From the NCBI GenBank assembly GCA_017539645.1, contig JAFYCM010000038.1:1-61151 (forward strand): a DNA stretch of 61,151 bases. Reading direction: 5' to 3'. A program made the translations under genes and the position numbers. This DNA is from Bacteroidales bacterium. GTDB taxonomy: Bacteria > Bacteroidota > Bacteroidia > Bacteroidales > Marinilabiliaceae. The notes below the pieces were generated by a model. The model worked only from the letters and a program-made list of their open reading frames with translations, was not told the origin of the DNA and did not search any database. This document shows, piece after piece, positions 2,157-60,995 of this stretch. Every line of letters begins with the position of its first letter. Position 1 is the stretch's first letter.

Positions 2157-3491
2157 TTATATCGGTTTTGAGAATGTTTTGCTTGTATTCTGCATCAGAG
2201 GATCGAGAAGCGCGGCCACGTTGCGCACGAGCGGCGAACTCGGTTCTGTCATACTTATTGTGTCGTTTTCTATAGTTATTATTCTGTCGTTCTGCATCTC
2301 CATCAGCCGCGCTGTATCGTAGTTTACGGCTGTCTTCTGTTCAGGGCTGAGCGTCACGGCATAGTTACACATCAAATCATCGATGACGGTGCGTATATGT
2401 TGCTGATCGGATGTGAGCGTATAGCCTTTTCTTATTGGCAAACGGCCATCGTTCACACTCGATATATATTCATCTATATCTTTGGTATTCTGAGCATAAG
2501 CTGTACTCAACTGACTAATACCTGTAACACCGAAGGCATATACCTGAGCCGTGGTGCGCAACGTACAGTAACCCTGAAAATTGCGATGCAACTTGTGCTC
2601 TGCCAGAGCGGTATAAAGTTCGTCGTGAGGGCGCACAAAGTGGTCCATTCCCACTCTTACGTATCCTGCCTTTTGCAGCAGTTGCGCTGCTGTCTCGAAC
2701 ATCGTCTCCTTGATTTGAACCGATGGCAGACCGTGCTTCTCCAAAATGAGTTGCTGCTTCTTGAGCCATGGCACATGCGCATAGCTAAATGTCACAAGTC
2801 GGTCGGGGTGGAGGGCGATGGCATGTTCTATAGTTCTGCTAAATGACTCTACAGTCTGATAAGGCAGACCATACAGGAAGTCGAGATTGATGTTCGCTTT
2901 TGCCTCACGCAGCAGAGCAAAAACGTCTTCGATAGGTTCGAGTGACGGACGGCGATTTACAGCCTTTAGCACTTTTTCGTCGAAATCCTGAATGCCAATG
3001 CTGAACCTCGTAAATCCGGCATCAACCAAATTGTTCCAGTCGTTAAGCGTCAAGTATCCTGGGTGACATTCTATGGCAATCTCTGGATTGTCTATCGTAT
3101 CGAAATGATTCAGCAGATGCTCGTTAAGCTCCTTTATTGCCTTGGCTGGCATTGCCGTTGGACTTCCGCCGCCGTAGTGAATCTGCGATATTCGGCGATC
3201 TTTGTCGATATACGGCAACAGAAGGTCTATTTCCTTATGCAGCGCGTCGATGTATTTTTCGACATTCGCCTCGTTGCCCATAGCGTACGAATTGCACGCG
3301 CAGTAGTGGCACAGATGCCTGCAAAATGGCATATGGAAGTAGAACGAAAGATTGCGATTCTCGTTTGCGTTCGAAAGTTTTACAGCATCGATATATTCTG
3401 GCTGAGCTAACGCGCCAAAATAGTTTGCAGGGGGATAACTCGTATAACGCGGTACAGGAATGTTGTACTTATCAATAATAGACTGCAACAT
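2157..3491 (-). CDS. hemN: Oxygen-independent coproporphyrinogen III oxidase HemN (radical SAM)
   Basis: 444 aa radical-SAM enzyme that decarboxylates two propionates of coproporphyrinogen III without oxygen. From the chosen ATG at 3491 the protein begins near the family signature PVPRYTSYP (residues 12-20). The 4Fe-4S motif is C57-x3-C61-x2-C64-x-C66, the CxxxCxxCxC form typical of true HemN rather than HemW. The GGGSPTAMP stretch is the SAM-binding Gly-rich motif. The open frame extends 19 codons upstream, but those codons run into the promoter, so the internal ATG is preferred. First gene of the hem run; an anaerobic lifestyle fits. Confidence 0.95.
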   Translation of the reverse strand: MLQSIIDKYNIPVPRYTSYPPANYFGALAQPEYIDAVKLSNANENRNLSFYFHMPFCRHLCHYCACNSYAMGNEANVEKYIDALHKEIDLLLPYIDKDRRISQIHYGGGSPTAMPAKAIKELNEHLLNHFDTIDNPEIAIECHPGYLTLNDWNNLVDAGFTRFSIGIQDFDEKVLKAVNRRPSLEPIEDVFALLREAKANINLDFLYGLPYQTVESFSRTIEHAIALHPDRLVTFSYAHVPWLKKQQLILEKHGLPSVQIKETMFETAAQLLQKAGYVRVGMDHFVRPHDELYTALAEHKLHRNFQGYCTLRTTAQVYAFGVTGISQLSTAYAQNTKDIDEYISSVNDGRLPIRKGYTLTSDQQHIRTVIDDLMCNYAVTLSPEQKTAVNYDTARLMEMQNDRIITIENDTISMTEPSSPLVRNVAALLDPLMQNTSKTFSKPI

Positions 3492-32795: not shown

Positions 32796-32837
32796 ATGTA
32801 ACGTACACAAAATACTATCGCTCTGTGCAAACATTTC

Positions 32838-32888
32838 GCTCGCACAGATTACACTGATAACGCTGATTTATAGTATTTTATAGAGTAG
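32838..32888 (-). repeat. Repeat B, copy at locus 1
   Basis: 51 bp that match 58273-58323 at 49 of 51 positions in opposite orientation. The shared block extends weakly to an AAAAAATAGCC box at 32896-32906. It begins soon after the stop of the orphan gene at 32935, in the same direction relative to the gene as at the second locus. Confidence 0.85.
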
Positions 32889-32934
32889 TGGCATTGGCTA
32901 TTTTTTGAGACTGGTGTGGAATGCCGAACAATGA

Positions 32935-33306
32935 CTATTCATCCCATACGAAAGTATCAAACCGCTCTTTTAGAAAGTTGATGTAAAAATCAACAAGTTC
33001 ATAGCATGGCGTACAATACCATTCAGGATCAATATCAGGAATAGTTTTGATTATCCCTTGATGAACGTCTTTTTCCCATGATAAATTCAAAGGTTGTTTA
33101 TGGTTCTTATAGACGGAGAAGTCTAAACAACCTCTATCTTGTTGAAATTGAATAATTATATTATCGCATCTATAGTCAACTTCCATAATTCCATTCGGTA
33201 AGCCTTCATATTCAAACAACACTTCTTGCCATAAAGGGAAAAACATATTTACTTGCTTTCTAATGTACAAAGCACACTCTAACTTAGTTTTGAATTTTGT
33301 TACCAT
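32935..33306 (-). CDS. Orphan protein of unknown function in a repeat-flanked islet
   Basis: 123 aa from the ATG at 33306, which has GGAGA seven nt upstream; a TTG four codons earlier overlaps that site and is rejected. No signal peptide or transmembrane segment. The protein is rich in Phe, Tyr and Trp (FFPLWQEVLFEYEGLPNG, CLDFSVYKNH, EWYCTPCYELVDFYINF) with a predicted mixed fold; I do not recognise a family. The DNA is visibly more AT-rich than the neighbours. Repeat A lies upstream and repeat B downstream. Small size, aromatic content and context recall orphan immunity genes, but this is only a guess. Confidence 0.6.
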   Translation of the reverse strand: MVTKFKTKLECALYIRKQVNMFFPLWQEVLFEYEGLPNGIMEVDYRCDNIIIQFQQDRGCLDFSVYKNHKQPLNLSWEKDVHQGIIKTIPDIDPEWYCTPCYELVDFYINFLKERFDTFVWDE

Positions 33307-33356: not shown

Positions 33357-33395
33357 AATTTGACTGTTTGAAATTGCAAATTGCCTCTCGTTTAT

Positions 33396-33444
33396 CGTAG
33401 GCTGTGCCTACGTCCTGTCTAAAAGCAAGGCTCCTGCCTTGCAC
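33396..33444 (-). repeat. Repeat A, copy at locus 1 (double hairpin)
   Basis: Two perfect 7-bp hairpins in tandem: CGTAGGC-TGT-GCCTACG and GCAAGGC-TCCT-GCCTTGC, joined by about 15 nt. The other copies are at 57732-57779 and 58333-58381 on the opposite strand. An ACGAGAG extension (33384-33391) is shared with the copy at 58333. Confidence 0.85.
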
Positions 33445-53236: not shown

Positions 53237-56200
53237 ATGAATATTTTCGAAAGTGCAGTAGAGAAGCCGATTTCGACCTTGATGATATTCTTGGCCGTAG
53301 TGGTTATCGGCGTTTTCTCATACATACAGCTGCCTGTCGACCAGTACCCAAAGATGGATCCGCCATACATCACTGTGATGACGACCTATCCGGGTGCAAA
53401 CGCGACAGATATAGAACAAAATATCACCAAGATTCTTGAGAATCAGCTCAACTCGGTAGACGACCTAAAGGAGATGACTTCAGTGTCGTACGATAACCTT
53501 TCTGTTGTCACACTTGAATTTGAGTGGGGTATAAACCTCGATAATGCATCGAACGATGTGCGCGATGCCGTTGATAAGTCGATGTCGTCGTTGCCTGACG
53601 ATATTGACCGACCTACCATCATGCGTATGTCGACGTCAATGATGCCTATCCTTGTGTATGCCGTTACTGCCGACCAGTCGTTTGGCGGTTTGTATAAAAT
53701 ATTGGACGACAAGGTCATCATGCGACTCAACCGTGTTGATGGTGTAGCTGCTGCCTACGTTGCAGGTTTGCCAGAGCGCGTTGTGTATGTCGACCTCGAT
53801 CCAAACAAACTTGATGCTTATGGGCTTTCAATTGAGAGCATAGGCAACAAGGTGTTGGCAGAAAACATGGACGTTTCGGCTGGTACAGTTAAGGTTGGTA
53901 TAGATGAATACACACTCCGCGTCGAAGGCGAATTCGACGAATCGGAGCAGATAAAGAACATTTCTATTCCGCTCGCTGGTGGCAAGACGGTCAAACTTAG
54001 CGATATTGCCAATGTCCGCGATACGTTGAAAGATATTACCCTTGAACAGAAAGTGCAACGTGGTAAGGGTGGCATATTGCTCGTTACTAAGCAGAGCGAT
54101 GCCAATGCCGTAGCCGTAGCTACCGAAGCCAAAGAGATGCTCGAATTGGCTAAGTCGGAGATGCCTGCCGATATTGAGTTTACCATGATTAACGACTCAT
54201 CGGACTTCATCACCAAAGCTATTCGCAACCTTGAGAGCACACTTATGTATGCACTCATATCGGTTGTTGTGGTTGTGTTTATATTCCTTGGTCGTTGGCG
54301 TTCTACGTTCATCATTGCCATGACCATACCTATCTCGCTCATCGTAGCATTCATATATCTCTTGGTGACCGACGGTTCGCTCAATACCATTACTCTCATG
54401 TCGCTCTCTATAGCCATAGGTATGGTGGTGGACGATGCCATTGTGGTGCTCGAGAACATCACCAAGCACGTAGAGCGTGGCTCACGTCCGAAAGAGGCTG
54501 CTAAATATGGTACCAACGAGGTGTGGACTTCGGTTATCGTAACCACTCTTGTAACTATTGCCGTATTCTTCCCACTTACGCTCATTCCGGGCATCATGGG
54601 TATATTCTTCAAGCCTCTTGGCTGGATTATATGTATATCGGTAACTACGTCAACGCTTACTGCTATCTCGTTCACGCCAATGCTTAGCTCTAAGTTCCTC
54701 ACCATGCGCAATGCTGCCGAGGAGGAGAAACAGGGTTTCAGCTTCTATGCATGGAGTAACCGCACATTTGGCAAACTCGATGCTTGGTATGAGAACCTCA
54801 TCCGCTGGGTGCTTGGACGAAAGAAAATTGTTATCGCTTCGATGACGTTGCTCTTCATTGCATCGCTCTTGTTAATGCGATTTGTATCTACAGAGTTCTT
54901 CCCACAGAACGACCAGAACGCGCTCAGTGTCTATGCTAAGATGCAGCAAGGTCAGCGCGTTGAAGTTACTCGCGAGATAGCATTGAAAGTCGATTCGATG
55001 ATACGCGAAGTGGTTGGTGAAGACCTCAAGACTCTCACCGTTTCGTACGGTTCGGAAGAGACAGCCTCGTTTGCTTCAATGATGTCGACAACGGGTAGCA
55101 ACGTTATGAATATGCGTATGCGTGCCGTAGATGTGAAAGACCGTAAGAATGGCGAATCGATATTCCAAATAGGTGATAAGATTCGTGCCATATTGAAAGA
55201 GGTGCCCGAAGTGCTCGAATACACAGTTTCGTTCGGTAACTCAGGTACAACTGGCAACTCTGTTGATATAGAAATTATTGGTCACGACTTTGAGACTACA
55301 ACAAACTTTGCACTCGAAGTAGCACGCGACATGAAGCAAGTGCCAGGTGCTGAGGATATTCAGATAAGTCGTGGTGATGACAAGACTGAGCTCCAGATAT
55401 ATCTCGACTCGGAGAAACTTGCACGCCATGGCCTTACCACATCGGGCGTAGGTGCTACATTGCGTAACAAGATTTATGGTTATCGTCAGAGCAAGTTCAA
55501 AGAGGAGGGCGAAGAGTATGACATCATCGTGCGCCTCGACGAGCAGTTCCGTTCATCGATAACCGACGTAGAAAACTTCATCATCACCGATGGTTACGGA
55601 CAAAATGTACGTGCCAAAGAGCTTGGCGACATTCGTGAAGGCTTCTCACCTCCATCAATTCAGCGTAAGAGCAAACAGCGTTACTTGACGGTGAGCGTCA
55701 CTCCAGCCGATGGCTATGCTCTTGGCGATATGGCCGAGGCAGCCAAAGAGGTGCTTAGCCAGAAAGAATTGCCTCAAGGCGTTACTACCTACGTGGGTGG
55801 TGCCTACGAAGACCAGCAAGACTCATTCAAAGCTCTGCTCCTATTGATGGCGTTGGCATTGCTACTTGTATACATAGTTATGGCAGCCGAATTTGAATCG
55901 TTCATAAGCCCATTCATCATCATGCTTGCCATACCATTCGCCTTCACAGGTGTAATCTTAGCACTGCTTCTCACTGGCTCAACACTCTCTGTAGTGGCAG
56001 CTCTTGGTGCCGTGATGCTTATCGGTATCGTTACAAAGAATGGTATCGTGCTCATCGACTATATCAACCTTATGCGTGAGCGTGGTTATGAACTCACCGA
56101 AGCCATAGCACTTTCGTGCCGTAGCCGTTTGCGTCCTGTGCTCATGACCTCGTTCACCACCATCTTGGGTATGCTTCCTATGGCTATCGACCACAGCGAA

Positions 56201-56407
56201 GGTGCAGAAACGTGGCGACCAATGGGTATCTCGGTCATTGGCGGTATGGTATTCTCTACCATCATCACCATGATTATAGTGCCTGCGGCCTATGCAGCAT
56301 CTAACAAGCGTGGCAACCGCAAGAAAGACGTAGAAGAGAAGAAGTCGTACCACTTCATGGACGATTTTGATGCTGAACGCGACCTCCCAGCTTGCCAGAA
56401 AAATTGA
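53237..56407 (+). CDS. RND family efflux pump permease (HAE1/AcrB type)
   Basis: 1056 aa with the two-fold RND layout: helix 1 at about 10-28, a large periplasmic loop, helices 2-6 (about 330-500), helix 7 near 535, a second loop and helices 8-12 (about 860-1020). The proton-relay motif GMVVDDAIVVLEN is in helix 4. Opening FESAVEKPISTLMIFLAVVVIG and the VTKNGIVLIDYINLMRERG stretch are typical of HAE1 pumps. Export of hydrophobic toxic compounds is likely; the substrate is unknown. Confidence 0.96.
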   Translation: MNIFESAVEKPISTLMIFLAVVVIGVFSYIQLPVDQYPKMDPPYITVMTTYPGANATDIEQNITKILENQLNSVDDLKEMTSVSYDNLSVVTLEFEWGINLDNASNDVRDAVDKSMSSLPDDIDRPTIMRMSTSMMPILVYAVTADQSFGGLYKILDDKVIMRLNRVDGVAAAYVAGLPERVVYVDLDPNKLDAYGLSIESIGNKVLAENMDVSAGTVKVGIDEYTLRVEGEFDESEQIKNISIPLAGGKTVKLSDIANVRDTLKDITLEQKVQRGKGGILLVTKQSDANAVAVATEAKEMLELAKSEMPADIEFTMINDSSDFITKAIRNLESTLMYALISVVVVVFIFLGRWRSTFIIAMTIPISLIVAFIYLLVTDGSLNTITLMSLSIAIGMVVDDAIVVLENITKHVERGSRPKEAAKYGTNEVWTSVIVTTLVTIAVFFPLTLIPGIMGIFFKPLGWIICISVTTSTLTAISFTPMLSSKFLTMRNAAEEEKQGFSFYAWSNRTFGKLDAWYENLIRWVLGRKKIVIASMTLLFIASLLLMRFVSTEFFPQNDQNALSVYAKMQQGQRVEVTREIALKVDSMIREVVGEDLKTLTVSYGSEETASFASMMSTTGSNVMNMRMRAVDVKDRKNGESIFQIGDKIRAILKEVPEVLEYTVSFGNSGTTGNSVDIEIIGHDFETTTNFALEVARDMKQVPGAEDIQISRGDDKTELQIYLDSEKLARHGLTTSGVGATLRNKIYGYRQSKFKEEGEEYDIIVRLDEQFRSSITDVENFIITDGYGQNVRAKELGDIREGFSPPSIQRKSKQRYLTVSVTPADGYALGDMAEAAKEVLSQKELPQGVTTYVGGAYEDQQDSFKALLLLMALALLLVYIVMAAEFESFISPFIIMLAIPFAFTGVILALLLTGSTLSVVAALGAVMLIGIVTKNGIVLIDYINLMRERGYELTEAIALSCRSRLRPVLMTSFTTILGMLPMAIDHSEGAETWRPMGISVIGGMVFSTIITMIIVPAAYAASNKRGNRKKDVEEKKSYHFMDDFDAERDLPACQKN

Positions 56408-56426
56408 TATTCAACCAATAACAAGA

Positions 56427-56726
56427 ATGAATATGAAAGCAGTTTTCATTACATACAACCAAGCTCTCACCGACCGTGTGAACTTCATCTTTGAGCAACT
56501 TCGCATCAAAGGCTTCACGCAGTTCCCGCTTACATACGGACGCGGCACCAACGGCGGCGAACCTCGCATGGGCTCTCACGCTTGGCCTGAGATGAATACA
56601 TCGATACTTACTATGGTTGAAGACGAAATGGTTCCGTTGATATTGAAATACGTTGAAAAACTCGACAACGTCAACAAAGAGAACGGCATCCGCGCCTTCG
56701 TCTGGAATATCGAGCAGATGTATTAG
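56427..56726 (+). CDS. PG0541-type RND transporter-associated small protein
   Basis: 99 aa from ATG 56427 (56433 is an equal alternative, MKAVFITYNQALTDRV). No signal or membrane segment. It matches what I know of the PG0541 family found downstream of RND pumps in Bacteroidetes; the fold may be ferredoxin-like (P-II-like), with AVFITYNQ, GTNGGEPRMGSHAWPEMN and a C-terminal IRAFVWNIEQMY. A regulatory or sensing role at the pump is an inference. It lies 19 nt after the pump gene and before a strong terminator. Confidence 0.8.
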   Translation: MNMKAVFITYNQALTDRVNFIFEQLRIKGFTQFPLTYGRGTNGGEPRMGSHAWPEMNTSILTMVEDEMVPLILKYVEKLDNVNKENGIRAFVWNIEQMY

Positions 56727-56765
56727 TAAATCTGATAAGTATATTAATAGACAACAACACACGCC

Positions 56766-56804
56766 ACACCATCGGGAAGAATACTTTCCGATGGTGTTTT
56801 TTTT
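56766..56804 (+). terminator. Terminator of the RND operon
   Basis: ACACCATCGG and CCGATGGTGT form a 10-bp perfect stem, extended by GA/TT pairs, then eight T residues. Confidence 0.92.
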
Positions 56805-56957
56805 ATTCTCGCCCAAGCGCTAATACTTCTTATGCTTAAGTTATTTCAAATATTTAGGCGAACACATTAATCCACAAAAACACTCAGATTAGGAAAGACT
56901 TGAGTGCTCATAAAGGATGGAAAGGTTATTTTAGACCAAAAATTAATACTAAATAAT

Positions 56958-57623
56958 ATGAATAAGATTCTTTTTGTAATTATGCTCGGATTGACATTTT
57001 GTCACTCTAATCGACAAGAATCATTGTCATCAAATTCTATGATTTTAACTGACAGTCTTAGTGTTCATTTCGATGTTAGTTATAAAACTATAACAAAGAG
57101 TAAAAGGTTTAGACCCGAAGTTATGCACTTGTCAGATTCTTTGGAAATAATGTATCTGTCAAAAGGTTACAATGCAGAATATGAAGGTGGAGGATGGGGA
57201 TTTATGATAGCTATACCCAAAGACACAACAGTTTCAAAAATATGTAACACTAAAAGATTCAGTGAAAAGCAATGGAAGCTTCGTAATGAATTTGTTCAAG
57301 AGATAAAAAATAAAATGGTAGAAAAGGCATTAAGCGATGAAGTAGAAAGCTATTTTGATGTGTTCTTTTATTATACCAGACAAGAGTATTTATATGTAAA
57401 TGGCGGCGCTGTAACCGATGATGGAAGAGAAGTGCCAGATTATAGTTTTCGTGATAACACCCCTATTGAGGAGTATCAATTGGGAAACGGCCAATGGGAA
57501 TTGACAAACTATATTTCTGATAGAGGTACGCGCGCAGACCATTCTTTTGGCAGGGAGAAAGCTTCACGGATTCTCAAAGAACGTTTTGGACAAATGGCAG
57601 AGGAAATGGAACGTAAAAAATAA
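56958..57623 (+). CDS. Orphan lipoprotein in the repeat islet (cassette ORF 1)
   Basis: 221 aa from the ATG at 56958; the open frame 18 codons upstream has no start context. Signal peptide with a possible lipobox (MLGLTFC, Cys about 15). The body is AT-rich in DNA and has no motif I know: GGGWGFMIAIPKDTTV, YFDVFFYYTRQEYLYVNGGAVTDDG, YQLGNGQWELTNY. A heat-rich mix of aromatics and charged residues suggests a small globular domain. The downstream repeat B' starts about 37 nt after the stop. No upstream repeat A. Confidence 0.6.
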   Translation: MNKILFVIMLGLTFCHSNRQESLSSNSMILTDSLSVHFDVSYKTITKSKRFRPEVMHLSDSLEIMYLSKGYNAEYEGGGWGFMIAIPKDTTVSKICNTKRFSEKQWKLRNEFVQEIKNKMVEKALSDEVESYFDVFFYYTRQEYLYVNGGAVTDDGREVPDYSFRDNTPIEEYQLGNGQWELTNYISDRGTRADHSFGREKASRILKERFGQMAEEMERKK

Positions 57624-57654
57624 TTTCTCCTCGCTCGGCATTTCGCCTTCTCGT

Positions 57655-57731
57655 AAAAAATAGCCTATGAACCCACCGCTGCAGAAACAAAACAGAAAAG
57701 AATGAAAGTGCAACAAAACGATATAGTGAAC
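57655..57731 (+). repeat. Diverged repeat B (B') after cassette ORF 1
   Basis: The box AAAAAATAGCCTATGAACCCAC corresponds to AAAAAATAACCAATGAGCCTAC at 58255, shown here by its first 11 nt only. The distance from this box to the next repeat A core is 73 nt, against 74 nt at 58261-58335, so the two spacers are homologous though diverged. Confidence 0.65.
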
Positions 57732-57779
57732 GTGCAAGGCAGGAGCCTTACTTTTAGCTCGGACGTAGGCACAGCCTAT
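57732..57779 (+). repeat. Repeat A, copy between cassette ORFs 1 and 2
   Basis: GCAAGGC-AGGA-GCCTTAC then GGACGTAGGC-ACA-GCCTATG: the same two hairpins as at 33396, each with one changed base. Followed by GCCCAACGGGGGC. Confidence 0.85.
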
Positions 57780-57841
57780 GCCCAACGGGGGCAAAGGATT
57801 GTATTCAAATTGAAAATTGATACTAATAAATTATACAAGCA

Positions 57842-58219
57842 ATGAATAAGTTAATATTAGTAATATTTGTAGCCATGACTATTAGTTGTTGTCGCATCGA
57901 TGATAATATCATTGGTAAATACAATTCATATCTACATGAAAAAGGTGTTATTCACTATGTAGAATTATTTCCCGATAGTACATATGAGCATGTTTATGTT
58001 CAAAATGGAGAAAAGATGGTGAATAAAGGGGGGTGGACTATATATAAAAAGGATTATTCGATTTTTTATGTAAATTTTTATAATTGGGAAAACTTTGGCT
58101 ATGCAAAAGATTTTTGTAAAACACATAGTTTTCAGATTAATGGCTATGGTGTGTTTATAAAAAATAAAAGAATGTTTTTTCATGTAGATGATTACGATTT
58201 GAATTTCAAGAAAGAATAG
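57842..58219 (+). CDS. Orphan lipoprotein in the repeat islet (cassette ORF 2)
   Basis: 125 aa. Signal peptide with lipobox TISC (Cys about 16; a second Cys follows). The body reads GKYNSYLHEKGVIHYVELFPDSTYEHVYVQNGEK, given here only as the two parts around HYVELF, and GGWTIYKKDYSIFYVNFYNWENFGY; a small beta-rich, lipocalin-like fold is conceivable. Strongly AT-rich DNA. The leader AAAATTGATACTAA resembles that before ORF 1 (AAAATTAATACTAA), so both may share a start context. Repeat A precedes it by 62 nt and repeat B follows. Confidence 0.6.
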   Translation: MNKLILVIFVAMTISCCRIDDNIIGKYNSYLHEKGVIHYVELFPDSTYEHVYVQNGEKMVNKGGWTIYKKDYSIFYVNFYNWENFGYAKDFCKTHSFQINGYGVFIKNKRMFFHVDDYDLNFKKE

Positions 58220-58254
58220 TTCTCTCTGTTCATCATAACGTCTCGCCACTTCGC

Positions 58255-58323
58255 AAAAAATAACCAATGAGCCTACTCTACAAAATACTATCAATCAGCG
58301 TTATCAGTGTAATCTGTGCGAGC
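58255..58323 (+). repeat. Repeat B, copy after cassette ORF 2
   Basis: Bases 58273-58323 match 32838-32888 (reverse strand) at 49 of 51 positions; the upstream box AAAAAATAACC begins 36 nt after the ORF 2 stop. The copy is followed at 10 nt by repeat A. Confidence 0.85.
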
Positions 58324-58332
58324 AATGTGTGC

Positions 58333-58381
58333 GCGCAAGGCAAGAGCCTTGCTTTTAACTCAGACGTAGGCACAGCCCACG
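58333..58381 (+). repeat. Repeat A, copy after repeat B
   Basis: GCAAGGC-AAGA-GCCTTGC and CGTAGGC-ACA-GCCCACG, the second hairpin with one changed base. Followed by GCCCAACGAGAG, where AACGAGAG is shared with the copy at locus 1. Confidence 0.85.
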
Positions 58382-58394
58382 CCCAACGAGAGAG

Positions 58395-58419
58395 ATCCTT
58401 CGCTACGCTCAGGATGACA
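58395..58419. repeat. Dispersed palindromic repeat ATCCTTCGCTACGCTCAGGAT
   Basis: A 25-bp copy of the well-known ATCCTTCGC-TACGCTCAGGAT repeat found in many bacterial genomes. On the minus strand it makes a spurious VILSVAKDLS peptide. Confidence 0.75.
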
Positions 58420-58512
58420 ACGTAAGCCCACACCATTTTCATGACTCGTTGGTAGTTGCGCAACTTGCGAAACTATGTTTGCAACGGTTGCAGGAAAATT
58501 TCAACTCAAACT

Positions 58513-58557
58513 AAAAAATCTGCGAGAATCCGTTCTAATCTGCTAAATCTGCGTGCC
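58513..58557. repeat. Dispersed repeat E, second copy
   Basis: Degenerate AATCTGCG/AATCCG units; homologous in reverse to 34407-34450. With repeats A and B it fills the 418-nt gap 58220-58637, where I see no gene. Confidence 0.6.
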
Positions 58558-58605
58558 ATTGGAATGAATACCTAATAATCAACATACTTTTTGGTTCGAT
58601 AGGTT

Positions 58606-58613
58606 TATATTTG
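58606..58613 (+). promoter_or_regulatory. -7 element for the SPOR gene
   Basis: TATATTTG fits TAnnTTTG, 24 nt before the ATG at 58638. Confidence 0.55.
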
Positions 58614-58637
58614 CCACCGCAAATTGATATAAATATA

Positions 58638-59048
58638 ATGGGAAGACTATTTGCGTTAATTATGGCTGTATCAGTGCTTTCGGTAGCATACGGTCAAAAA
58701 CGAGGAACTGTGACAATAGACTATCATAGTGCGCAACTCGATTCGCTAATATCGACAAATCACAAAATAGAGAGCGATCAGCCCAACATAAACGGCTATC
58801 GCGTGCAAGTCTACAGCGGTTCGGGTGTTAAGGCAAAGGCCGAAGCAAAGGCAGCACAAGCCAAGTTGCAAACTCTGTTCCCCGACGAGAAGGTTTACAT
58901 CGTCTACAACGCTCCATTTTGGCGAGTTCGCATAGGCGATTTCCGTTACAGAAGTGAGGCCCTACCACTTCTCTCAAAAATCAAAAGTCACTTTGCGGGT
59001 AGTTATGCCGTGCGCGACTACACGGTGCGAAAACGAAGTTTTAGGTAA
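58638..59048 (+). CDS. SPOR-domain exported protein
   Basis: 136 aa from the ATG at 58638, with a signal peptide (MGRLFALIMAVSVLSVAYG). The C-terminal about 75 residues form a SPOR domain: GYRVQVYSGSGVKAKAEAKAA, LFPDEKVYIVYNAPFWRVRIGDF and the final SYAVRDYTVR. SPOR domains bind glycan strands lacking stem peptides and localise to the septum. Single-SPOR small exported proteins are common in Bacteroidetes; partners unknown. Own promoter; 45 nt before the purF-like gene. Confidence 0.88.
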   Translation: MGRLFALIMAVSVLSVAYGQKRGTVTIDYHSAQLDSLISTNHKIESDQPNINGYRVQVYSGSGVKAKAEAKAAQAKLQTLFPDEKVYIVYNAPFWRVRIGDFRYRSEALPLLSKIKSHFAGSYAVRDYTVRKRSFR

Positions 59049-59093
59049 CATTTTTATACTTATATAATTAATCAATAAAACTCAGGGATCAAG

Positions 59094-60995
59094 ATGAGTG
59101 AACAGATTAAACACGAATGCGGCATAGTACTTATCAGACTGCTCAAGCCGCTTAGCTATTATCAAGAAAAATATGGCACATGGCAGTGGGGACTCAACAA
59201 GCTCTACTTGCTTATGGAGAAACAACACAACCGCGGACAAGATGGTGCTGGTGCTGCAAGTGTAAAACTCGATTTGCAGTCGGGCAAAAAATATATCGAC
59301 CGCGTGCGCTCCAATGCTGCCAACCCAATACAAAGCGTAATCGACCAGATTCACGCCCTGCACGACAAAGCCTACGCTGTGAACGGCGAGAAGATGAAAG
59401 ATGCCGAATGGGCCAAAGAGAACGTCCCCTTTGCGAGCGAACTCTACCTCGGCCACTTGCGCTATGGTACGTTTGGTAATAATAATATCGAATACGTACA
59501 CCCCGTGATGCGCGAAAACAACTGGCGCAGCCGTAGCCTCGTTATGGCGGGCAACTTCAACCTTACCAATGTGGATGAAATTTTCCATTCGCTCGAAGAA
59601 CTCGGCCAGCATCCTAACGACTATTCCGACACCGTAACTATTCTCGAAAACGTTGGCCACTTCCTCGACGAAGAGGTGCAACTGCTTTTCCGCCAGTATA
59701 AAAACGAAGGTTACACCAATCGCGAGATAACCAACTACATTGAGAAGAATCTCGATGTGAAGAAGATTCTCGAGCGCTCGCAGCGCAAGTGGGACGGTGG
59801 CTACGTGATAGCTGGTATGATTGGCCACGGCGATGCATTCGTTACGCGCGACCCTTGGGGCATTCGTCCTGCATATTACTATTATGATGACGAGATAGCC
59901 GTTGTGGCTTCGGAGCGTCCTGTTATTCAAACGGCTATCAACGTTCGCGCATGTCAGGTGCAGGAACTTCAGCCGGGACACGCCATAATTATAAAGAAAG
60001 ATGGCACCGTCAGCGACGAACTTGTGCGCGTGCCTCAGCAGCGCCGATCGTGCTCGTTTGAGCGTATATATTTCTCTCGTGGTTCGGATCGCGATATTTA
60101 TAAAGAACGCAAGAAACTCGGCTATCTGCTTGCACCAACGCTTCTCGAAAAGGTTGGTGGCGACATAGATAACACCGTTTTCTCATACATACCAAACACC
60201 GCCGAAACGGCATTTCTCGGACTTGAGGAGGGCGTGCGCCACATTGTGAAGGAGCAGCAAGCAAAGAAGATTGTTGACGAGCTGCCTAACCTCACGCCAG
60301 AGCGCGTGCAGGAGATTTTGTCGGTCGAGCCGCGCTTCGAGAAACTCACCGTGAAGGACGTCAAAATGCGCACCTTCATTGCTGCCGACACGGGTCGCGA
60401 CAATATGGTGGGTCACGTCTACGATGTTACGTACGGCATTGTTAACAATCAGAAAGACACGCTCATCGTCATCGACGACAGCATTGTGCGCGGCACCACG
60501 TTGCGTCAGAGCATACTTAGCATCATGGACCGCTTGCATCCGAAGAAGATAATCATAGTTTCGTCGGCTCCGCAGATTCGCTACCCCGATTGTTATGGTA
60601 TAGATATGGCCAAGCTCGGCGACTTCTGTGCCTTCACCGCAGCCATCGAGCTTCTCAAAGAGCGCGGTATGACTGACGTGATAGACAATGTATACAAACA
60701 GTGCAAAGAGCAGCAGTTCCTTCCTAAAGAGGATATTGTAAACTGCGTGAAGGATATTTACCGCCCATTCACAGCCGAAGAGATTTCTGCCAAGATTGCC
60801 CAGATGCTTACGCCCGACACAATGAATGCTGAGGTCGAAATAGTGTTCCAAACCATTGAGAATTTGCACATTGCTTGTCCTAACGACACTGGCGACTGGT
60901 ACTTCACCGGTAATTATCCTACGCCGGGCGGCAATAAAGTTGTAAATACTTCGTTTATCAATTACATAGAGGGTCGTAACCAACGTGCATATTGA
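59094..60995 (+). CDS. Amidophosphoribosyltransferase-like protein, long variant (class II glutamine amidotransferase)
   Basis: 633 aa, about 150 longer than typical PurF (about 470-505). The class II amidotransferase half has a candidate nucleophile C9 (after MSEQIKHE), NRGQDGAGAAS, YLGHLRYGTFG and RDPWGIRPAYYY. The phosphoribosyltransferase half has the PRPP loop VIDDSIVRGTT at about residues 460-470 and RYPDCYGIDM. Use of C9 implies removal of an 8-residue propeptide. The reaction may be that of PurF (PRPP plus glutamine to phosphoribosylamine), but in Bacteroidetes such long forms can exist beside a normal PurF, so a paralogous role is possible. Confidence 0.82.
   Translation: MSEQIKHECGIVLIRLLKPLSYYQEKYGTWQWGLNKLYLLMEKQHNRGQDGAGAASVKLDLQSGKKYIDRVRSNAANPIQSVIDQIHALHDKAYAVNGEKMKDAEWAKENVPFASELYLGHLRYGTFGNNNIEYVHPVMRENNWRSRSLVMAGNFNLTNVDEIFHSLEELGQHPNDYSDTVTILENVGHFLDEEVQLLFRQYKNEGYTNREITNYIEKNLDVKKILERSQRKWDGGYVIAGMIGHGDAFVTRDPWGIRPAYYYYDDEIAVVASERPVIQTAINVRACQVQELQPGHAIIIKKDGTVSDELVRVPQQRRSCSFERIYFSRGSDRDIYKERKKLGYLLAPTLLEKVGGDIDNTVFSYIPNTAETAFLGLEEGVRHIVKEQQAKKIVDELPNLTPERVQEILSVEPRFEKLTVKDVKMRTFIAADTGRDNMVGHVYDVTYGIVNNQKDTLIVIDDSIVRGTTLRQSILSIMDRLHPKKIIIVSSAPQIRYPDCYGIDMAKLGDFCAFTAAIELLKERGMTDVIDNVYKQCKEQQFLPKEDIVNCVKDIYRPFTAEEISAKIAQMLTPDTMNAEVEIVFQTIENLHIACPNDTGDWYFTGNYPTPGGNKVVNTSFINYIEGRNQRAY

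What the first reader, a model, noticed from the sequence alone, without database searches (positions are those of the whole stretch)
56958..58381. Cassette-like array: ORF-B'-A-ORF-B-A with unrelated orphan lipoprotein genes
Two unrelated AT-rich orphan lipoprotein genes in the same direction are each followed by the same composite repeat. The AAAAAATAGCC-type box begins 31-37 nt after each stop codon, and its distance to the next repeat A core is 73 nt in one copy and 74 nt in the other, although the sequence between has diverged. This is what a mobile gene cassette with a defined 3' element would look like: one ORF plus one recombination or processing site per unit. It does not match integron attC well, since no convincing paired RYYYAAC/GTTRRRY core sites were found.
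Basis: partly seen in the sequence, partly recalled or inferred. Interest (0 to 1): 0.8.

Follow-up and report, generated by a model that had tools for sequence, protein, structure and literature searches.

The report
REP repeats bordering swapped immunity cassettes
The repeat between the two small orphan genes is a hairpin element of a known self-copying family (a REP doublet), and in this bacterium and a close relative it marks many of the joints where small, probably toxin-protection, genes have been swapped in and out.

Summary
Two unrelated AT-rich genes are each followed by the same composite repeat. Repeat A is a two-hairpin unit with compensatory changes: 54 units in the window's genome, 42 in the close relative G002. 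The "B" box is the middle of a longer element whose left end is a decayed inverted copy of A, so B+A is a REPIN (inverted REP doublet). In two other Bacteroidales genomes, three REP-associated tyrosine transposase (RAYT) genes are flanked on both sides by inverted A-type units; the window's genome has one RAYT gene, flanked by units of the same build but other sequence. The cassette idea is partly right. In G002, 24 of 28 flank pieces are found but only 10 of 33 pieces of genes beside A, six of those at another locus. Aligned blocks end within 8 nt of A's 3' end 8 times of 81 (chance 0.4). The window array is wholly replaced in G002. In three distant genomes A clusters lie beside Rhs toxin genes. 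Most likely RAYT-made REPINs sit between displaced toxin-tail/immunity genes and serve as shared homology for swapping them. It does not look like an integron. Whether the transposase itself moves cassettes is open.

The parts
56804..58239 (.). Interval wholly replaced by 1961 bp of other sequence in sister genome G002; flanks 96.9% and 96.0% identical
56958..57623 (+). Orphan gene 1, 221 aa, lipoprotein-like start, immunity gene by position only
   Evidence: no Pfam family; a 100-bp piece is not found in G002
57630..57791 (+). REPIN 1: decayed left unit 57630-57654, chimeric middle 57655-57732, right unit A 57733-57791
57788..57845 (+). 18-codon open stretch read on from A, ending over the start of gene 2; may be the tail of a lost toxin (inferred)
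57842..58219 (+). Orphan gene 2, 125 aa, lipoprotein-like start, immunity gene by position only
   Evidence: a 100-bp piece is not found in G002
58238..58392 (+). REPIN 2: decayed left unit 58238-58254, B middle 58255-58333, right unit A 58334-58392; also present in G002 with a different upstream part
33389..33443 (-). Third A unit in the window, at a separate locus
32935..33306 (-). Gene beyond the 3' end of that unit; its match in G002 lies at another locus, beside a RAYT gene
32827..32907 (-). B-type middle after the stop of that gene, without a right-hand A unit

Best explanation
The composite repeat is a REPIN: two inverted REP units around a 50-85 nt middle, made and moved (now or in the past) by a Bacteroidales RAYT. 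REPINs lie between displaced modules of interbacterial toxin systems, often a leftover toxin tail plus a small immunity-type gene. Because nearly the same REPIN lies at dozens of loci, it gives incoming or rearranging DNA a shared stretch in which to cross over, so that modules are added, lost or replaced with joints at REPIN units. Shown: the REP/REPIN structure; RAYT genes flanked by A-type units in two other genomes; cargo turnover between sister species with an excess of joints at A; clustering with Rhs toxin genes in three distant genomes. Inferred: that the window's two genes are immunity genes, that crossing over inside REPINs is the usual route, and that this benefits the cell.
For: Two hairpins with compensatory changes (96.1% of cells paired; 42 cells changed on both sides against 10.7 in shuffles). 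Inverted doublets. Three RAYT genes with inverted A-type units on both sides; RAYT identity by NCBIfam NF047646 over its cut-off for L019, L150 and L151. Flank pieces 24 of 28 but cargo pieces 10 of 33 found in G002. Block ends within 8 nt of A 3' ends: 8 of 81, random 0.44, at most 3 in 2000 draws. L092 combines the upstream side of the A at L014:5900-5953 with the downstream side (about 55 nt) of the A at L014:3814-3863, lacking what lies between. Rhs core clusters within 5 kb of A clusters: 2 of 4, 2 of 5, 2 of 6 in G020, G113, G047.
Against: The units flanking the RAYT of the window's own genome share the build but not the sequence of A. G003 (23 units) and G001 (20) have no RAYT over the Pfam cut-off, and G003's one Rhs core is not near a listed A unit. 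71 of 81 block ends are not within 8 nt of an A end. Some A units sit at sites without cargo. Two joints (L025:4145, L028:3899) have A in one genome only, which crossing over between two A copies does not explain. Compared genomes are draft or metagenome assemblies, and loci were chosen because they hold A.
Confidence: 0.5

Rival explanations
1. Bystander: RAYT-made REPINs simply pile up in AT-rich, loosely constrained toxin/immunity islands. Cargo turns over by recombination in longer flanks or by illegitimate joining, and REPINs are passive landmarks.
For: Cargo is far more AT-rich than its flanks. The window flanks are 96-97% identical between species whose other flank pieces are 77-100% identical, so a long segment may have been exchanged through its flanks. 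One joint uses a GCCC microhomology (L028 against L108). Displacement without specific sites is described for Vibrio T6SS arrays (PMC5361080, passages).
Against: Joints are enriched at A ends within the same loci. The L092/L014 arrangement looks like a crossover between A copies.
Confidence: 0.28
2. Active cassette mobilisation: the RAYT cuts single-stranded DNA at REP ends and moves the gene between two REPs, or joins REP-ended DNA next to G-rich targets, as an integron-like machine.
For: RAYT gene in G000 and G002, the two congeners with most A units. Joints at A 3' ends are 8 against 2 at 5' ends. A is usually followed by a G-run (32 to 36 of 51 units at each of five positions), and at L025 A meets a GGAGG site of the uninterrupted G002 copy. 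G002 carries two identical 651-bp RAYT units at two loci.
Against: A units also abound where no RAYT over the cut-off was found (G001, G003, G011). No cleanly filled and empty site pair with both edges of a moved cassette was found. [quoted passage not shown]
Confidence: 0.13
3. A site-specific tyrosine-recombinase cassette array (integron attC, or a recombinase-associated rAID array).
For: Co-oriented short AT-rich genes with conserved spacers resemble rAID arrays (PMC12247911, passages).
Against: Spacers are REPINs of a RAYT family. Elements are scattered over more than 20 contigs with few genes each. No integrase is among the 25 of 145 Pfam families shown for 110 neighbouring proteins, which is not proof of absence. 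The GTT/AAC boxes lie in the order opposite to attC (judged by eye; attC order from memory).
Confidence: 0.04
4. A and B encode a start codon and signal peptide that serve as a shared leader for the downstream proteins.
For: One frame is open through most units and several upstream leaders read like signal peptides.
Against: The other two frames usually carry stops inside the unit, so openness of the third means little. It is broken in L013 and L015:4429, and the L025 tail is in another frame. Constraint follows the hairpins.
Confidence: 0.02

Closest known systems
REP/REPIN sequences with RAYT (TnpA-REP), nearest to subclass 2.6 (RAYT group 5) of Bacteroidetes in PMC6006769 (passages seen)
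   Same: Dispersed palindromic units, inverted doublets, RAYT genes flanked by the units in G020 and G047; no GT[AG]G foot, as reported for 2.6
   Different: Two hairpins per unit with a fixed spacer; position between toxin/immunity genes and at joints of gene exchange, which I did not find described
Immunity gene arrays by sequential effector displacement, Vibrio T6SS (PMC5361080, passages)
   Same: Orphan immunity-type genes in a row with leftover effector ends
   Different: The Vibrio model names no dispersed repeat; here a REPIN lies at many joints and the arrays are scattered over many loci
[quoted passage not shown]
   Same: Co-oriented short AT-rich genes with conserved intergenic motifs
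   Different: rAID is defined by an upstream tyrosine recombinase, not seen here; here the spacers are REPINs
Integron gene cassettes with attC (from memory)
   Same: Gene plus a folding single-strand site; gene content varies
   Different: No attC core order and no integrase seen; elements scattered over the genome

Membership tests
REP/REPIN of a RAYT | Short palindromic unit in many dispersed copies | tested here: met
   54 and 42 units in G000 and G002; covariation
REP/REPIN of a RAYT | Inverted doublets (REPIN) | tested here: met
   10 of 35 elements in G000 loci and 5 of 28 in G002 loci at 30 bits or more per unit
REP/REPIN of a RAYT | RAYT gene flanked by the same units | tested here: met
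   G020 twice, G047 once, 3 of 13 PF01797 matches in G020, G113 and G047. In G000 the flanking units have the same build but other sequence
REP/REPIN of a RAYT | GT[AG]G foot of canonical REPs | tested here: not met
   The outer end reads GTT(T/C)GGC on that strand; PMC6006769 (passages) says subclass 2.6 also lacks the foot
REP/REPIN of a RAYT | RAYT cuts and joins the unit | not testable with these tools
   Needs an assay
RAYT subclass 2.6 | Motifs NH[LIV]H, WQ, YIH[QN]NP (PMC6006769) | tested here: inconclusive
   L019 protein has NHIH and WQ but YIRMNP; L151 has NHMH, WT and YIHQNP (sequences)
Displaced polymorphic toxin/immunity array | Toxin ends or toxin genes beside the small genes | tested here: inconclusive
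   Rhs core near A clusters in G020, G113, G047 and a leftover 15-codon tail at L025; none identified in the window itself, and 20 of 30 scanned proteins have no Pfam match
Displaced polymorphic toxin/immunity array | The small genes give immunity | not testable with these tools
   Only L023:4009-4479 matches an immunity family, Imm26
rAID | Tyrosine recombinase upstream of the array | tested here: inconclusive
   Not among the 25 of 145 families shown for 110 neighbouring proteins
Integron cassette | attC core sites in RYYYAAC...GTTRRRY order | tested here: not met
   By eye and the doublets: GTT-type box on the outer left, AAC on the outer right, the reverse order (attC order from memory)
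Integron cassette | Integron integrase | not tested
   No genome-wide integrase search was made

The most novel reading that the evidence does not exclude
In Bacteroidales a RAYT with two-hairpin REPs works as a gene-cassette exchange platform for interbacterial toxin/immunity genes: the enzyme cuts at REP ends and moves the gene lying between two REPs as single-stranded DNA, a functional counterpart of the integron.
Probability: 0.13. Interest if true: 0.88.

Novelty: new variant of a known kind. Interest (0 to 1): 0.6.

Why it matters
Displaced toxin and immunity arrays are common, but what lets unrelated modules join is unclear: the Vibrio study argues for recombination without specific sites plus illegitimate joining, and how rAID arrays are built is called an area of active research (PMC5361080, PMC12247911, passages). 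A dispersed RAYT-made repeat at the joints would supply shared homology, would give RAYT/REP populations, whose maintenance PMC6006769 (passages) calls a question, a possible benefit to the host, and would offer a sequence marker for finding immunity genes of unknown family. Searches pairing RAYT with polymorphic toxin, Rhs or immunity gene listed no title or abstract start that describes this link; the library holds only open-licence papers and I did not open the papers listed there.

Tried and rejected
Coding-leader reading of A: dropped, because its open frame is expected from stops in the other two and is broken in some copies. Integron attC: box order reversed (by eye). Rfam at gathering threshold: only four tRNAs in the window. 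Plasmids and phages: no match to a full REPIN. Structure prediction of the two window proteins from single sequences failed (mean pLDDT 38.1 and 33.5), so no fold search was run. Relatives of one cargo tail (104 aa) in 393 genomes: only itself. A strict RAYT/A co-occurrence was dropped: the RAYT protein is in G000 and G002 only (2 of 15), but 8 of 15 congeners carry A units. NCBIfam gave no hit for the TANFOR-like fragment in L081 or for the large proteins of L028 and L111; 'TANFOR' is a label from memory. One Neisseria paper that holds Rhs, REP and immunity terms was opened for passages; there REP appears only in a cited title.

Full report
What is there. Window 56958-58388 holds two unrelated small genes, each followed by a composite repeat. 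In the whole genome (G000, 101 contigs) the spacer has 34 matches. I fetched 20 stretches around them and compared the copies.

What the repeat is. Unit A is about 59 nt: hairpin 1 (GCAAGGC-loop-GCCTTGC), a 12-13 nt spacer (TTTTAGCTC..), hairpin 2 (CGTAGGC-loop-GCCTACG) and an AAC end followed by a G-run. On 81 distinct units (of 86 listed) the 14 pairs hold in 96.1% of cells; 42 cells carry changes on both sides against 10.7 in shuffles, 39 of the 42 in the two tip pairs of hairpin 2. Counting units of 30 bits or more, 10 of 35 elements in the G000 loci and 5 of 28 in the G002 loci are inverted pairs around a middle. One such 167-nt element folds at -37.7 kcal/mol, z -5.8. Folded alone, window unit 2 has z -4.1 but window unit 1 only -1.2. 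Window copy 1 joins the start of the B middle to the other middle type.

Who makes it. The genome has one PF01797 match, L019:1617-2159. It passes the NCBIfam model for REP-associated tyrosine transposase, 96.4 bits against a cut-off of 80; its only PDB match at E 0.01 is a TnpA-REP chain, 4er8, E 0.0039. Its gene lies between two inverted units of the same build (5-bp hairpin, 12-nt spacer, 10-bp hairpin, AAC end) but other sequence. The same protein, 98% identical, occurs twice in sister genome G002 and in none of the other 13 congeners searched; the two G002 copies share an identical 651-bp run. In G020 (two genes) and G047 (one gene), other families of the order, RAYT genes have A-type units in inverted order on both sides; these are 3 of 13 PF01797 matches in G020, G113 and G047. 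The covariance model finds A units in 8 of 15 congeners (54, 42, 23, 20, 9, 2, 1, 1) and, at E 1e-5, in 10 of 149 genomes of the order, own included. An exact 25-mer of A is also in MAGs labelled Spirochaetales, Dysgonamonadaceae, Prevotellaceae and Bacteroidales. So A is a patchily spread REP. G001 and G011 gave no PF01797 match and G003 only one below the cut-off.

Does gene content vary with it. G002 is the closest congener by the nucleotide search. Identity of its matches to G000 flank pieces runs from 77 to 100%. At the window locus, 53413-56803 and 58240-60898 are 96.9% and 96.0% identical to G002, while the 1436 bp between are replaced by 1961 bp of other genes with another A copy. REPIN 2 is present in both: the 60 nt after it are identical, the part before it differs. 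Over the fetched loci, 28 flank pieces of 100 bp gave hits for 24 in G002 (missed: L026:3000, L028:5600, L029:3600, L025:9400), while 33 pieces of genes beside A gave hits for 10. By comparison with the flanks, four of the ten are at the syntenic locus (L021, L023, L024, L025:3800) and six elsewhere (L017 two, L025:10500, L027, L030, window:33100); the L027 and window matches lie beside a RAYT gene.

Where the joints are. Of 81 distinct ends of aligned blocks of 400 bp or more (ends within 60 nt of a locus border and near-duplicates dropped), 8 lie within 8 nt of an A 3' end and 2 within 8 nt of a 5' end; random positions in the same loci give 0.44 at 3' ends, at most 3 in 2000 draws. The other 71 are elsewhere, often at gene ends of diverged flanks. 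Most of the 3' joints have A in both genomes and different sequence beyond it, as crossing over between A copies would leave. L092 is the clearest: upstream it matches the A at L014:5900-5953, downstream for about 55 nt the A at L014:3814-3863, without what lies between; the G002 contig ends soon after. Two joints have A in one genome only. At L025:4145 A abuts the last 15 codons of an ORF that runs 91 codons in G002, with the same 133-aa gene after it, the block being 97.2% identical. At L028 a shortened A replaces the body of a gene that is longer in L108 and L111, at a GCCC microhomology.

What the cargo is. The cargo genes have median GC 0.323 (n = 32, hand-picked) against 0.486 for flanking genes (n = 28) and a median of 183 codons. 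Of 30 proteins scanned with Pfam (cargo, toxin-like genes and the RAYT), 20 have no match at E 0.01; informative ones are Imm26, SH3, ankyrin and an Rhs protein. Rhs core domains lie within 5 kb of A clusters in G020 (2 of 4 clusters), G113 (2 of 5) and G047 (2 of 6), P 0.006, 0.003 and 0.002 under random placement on rounded genome sizes. By eye on the listed units (the list is capped) the count is 2 of 3 in G002 and 1 of 3 in G000; G003's single Rhs core is not near a listed A unit and G001 has none. In G020, G047 and G113 the five PF01797 matches below 41 bits, the RAYT-like ones, all lie within 5 kb of an Rhs core, and none of the eight higher-scoring ones does (counted by hand).

Reading. 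The element is a REPIN. It sits between pieces of toxin/immunity-like arrays and is a preferred joint of gene exchange between two sister species. I hold crossing over in REPINs as the likeliest route, passive presence as the main rival, and direct movement by the RAYT as the boldest reading not excluded. Displaced immunity arrays are known (PMC5361080, passages), rAID arrays are known (PMC12247911, passages) and RAYT/REP systems are known (PMC6006769 and PMC3733652, passages). I found no listing that joins RAYT/REP to toxin cassettes, in an open-licence library only and without opening most of the papers listed.

Limits. The compared genomes are draft or metagenome assemblies and several arrays run to contig ends. 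Gene calls were a crude longest-ORF script. Loci were chosen because they hold A. The function of the window's two proteins rests on position alone.

Noticed in passing
58393-58422: Directly after REPIN 2 lies AGATCCTTCGCTACGCTCAGGATGAC, which resembles the CGTC-tagged palindromic repeats of PMC3733652 (resemblance from memory of the motif); it is identical in G002.
   Followed up: no
L054 (G002:C5) and L057 (G002:C17): Two RAYT copies at different loci share an identical 651-bp run, suggesting recent movement or exchange of the RAYT gene itself.
   Followed up: partly
L015 (G000:C39 end) and L013 (G000:C96 start): The gene cut at the end of C39 continues at the start of C96, so the two contigs probably adjoin in one long array.
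   Followed up: no
L014:3932-4477, L015:4488-5048, L016:5063-5599: A family of about 180-aa membrane-type proteins with similar ends (KYKDGVPFEPKKQKE and alike) lies beyond an A unit at three loci.
   Followed up: no
G000 against G002: Identity of flank pieces runs from 77 to 100%, a mosaic that suggests recent exchange of some segments between the two species, the window array among them.
   Followed up: partly
L020:2923-3002, L029:4746-4826, window 32827-32907: In copies without a right-hand A the B middle runs on to GATAGTATT, the inverse of its AATACTATC, so B may itself be an older palindromic element.
   Followed up: no
L019:2367-2666 and 2980-3279: Two tandem paralogous 176-aa genes, 78% identical over 300 nt, follow the RAYT; only the first is preceded by an A unit.
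   Followed up: no
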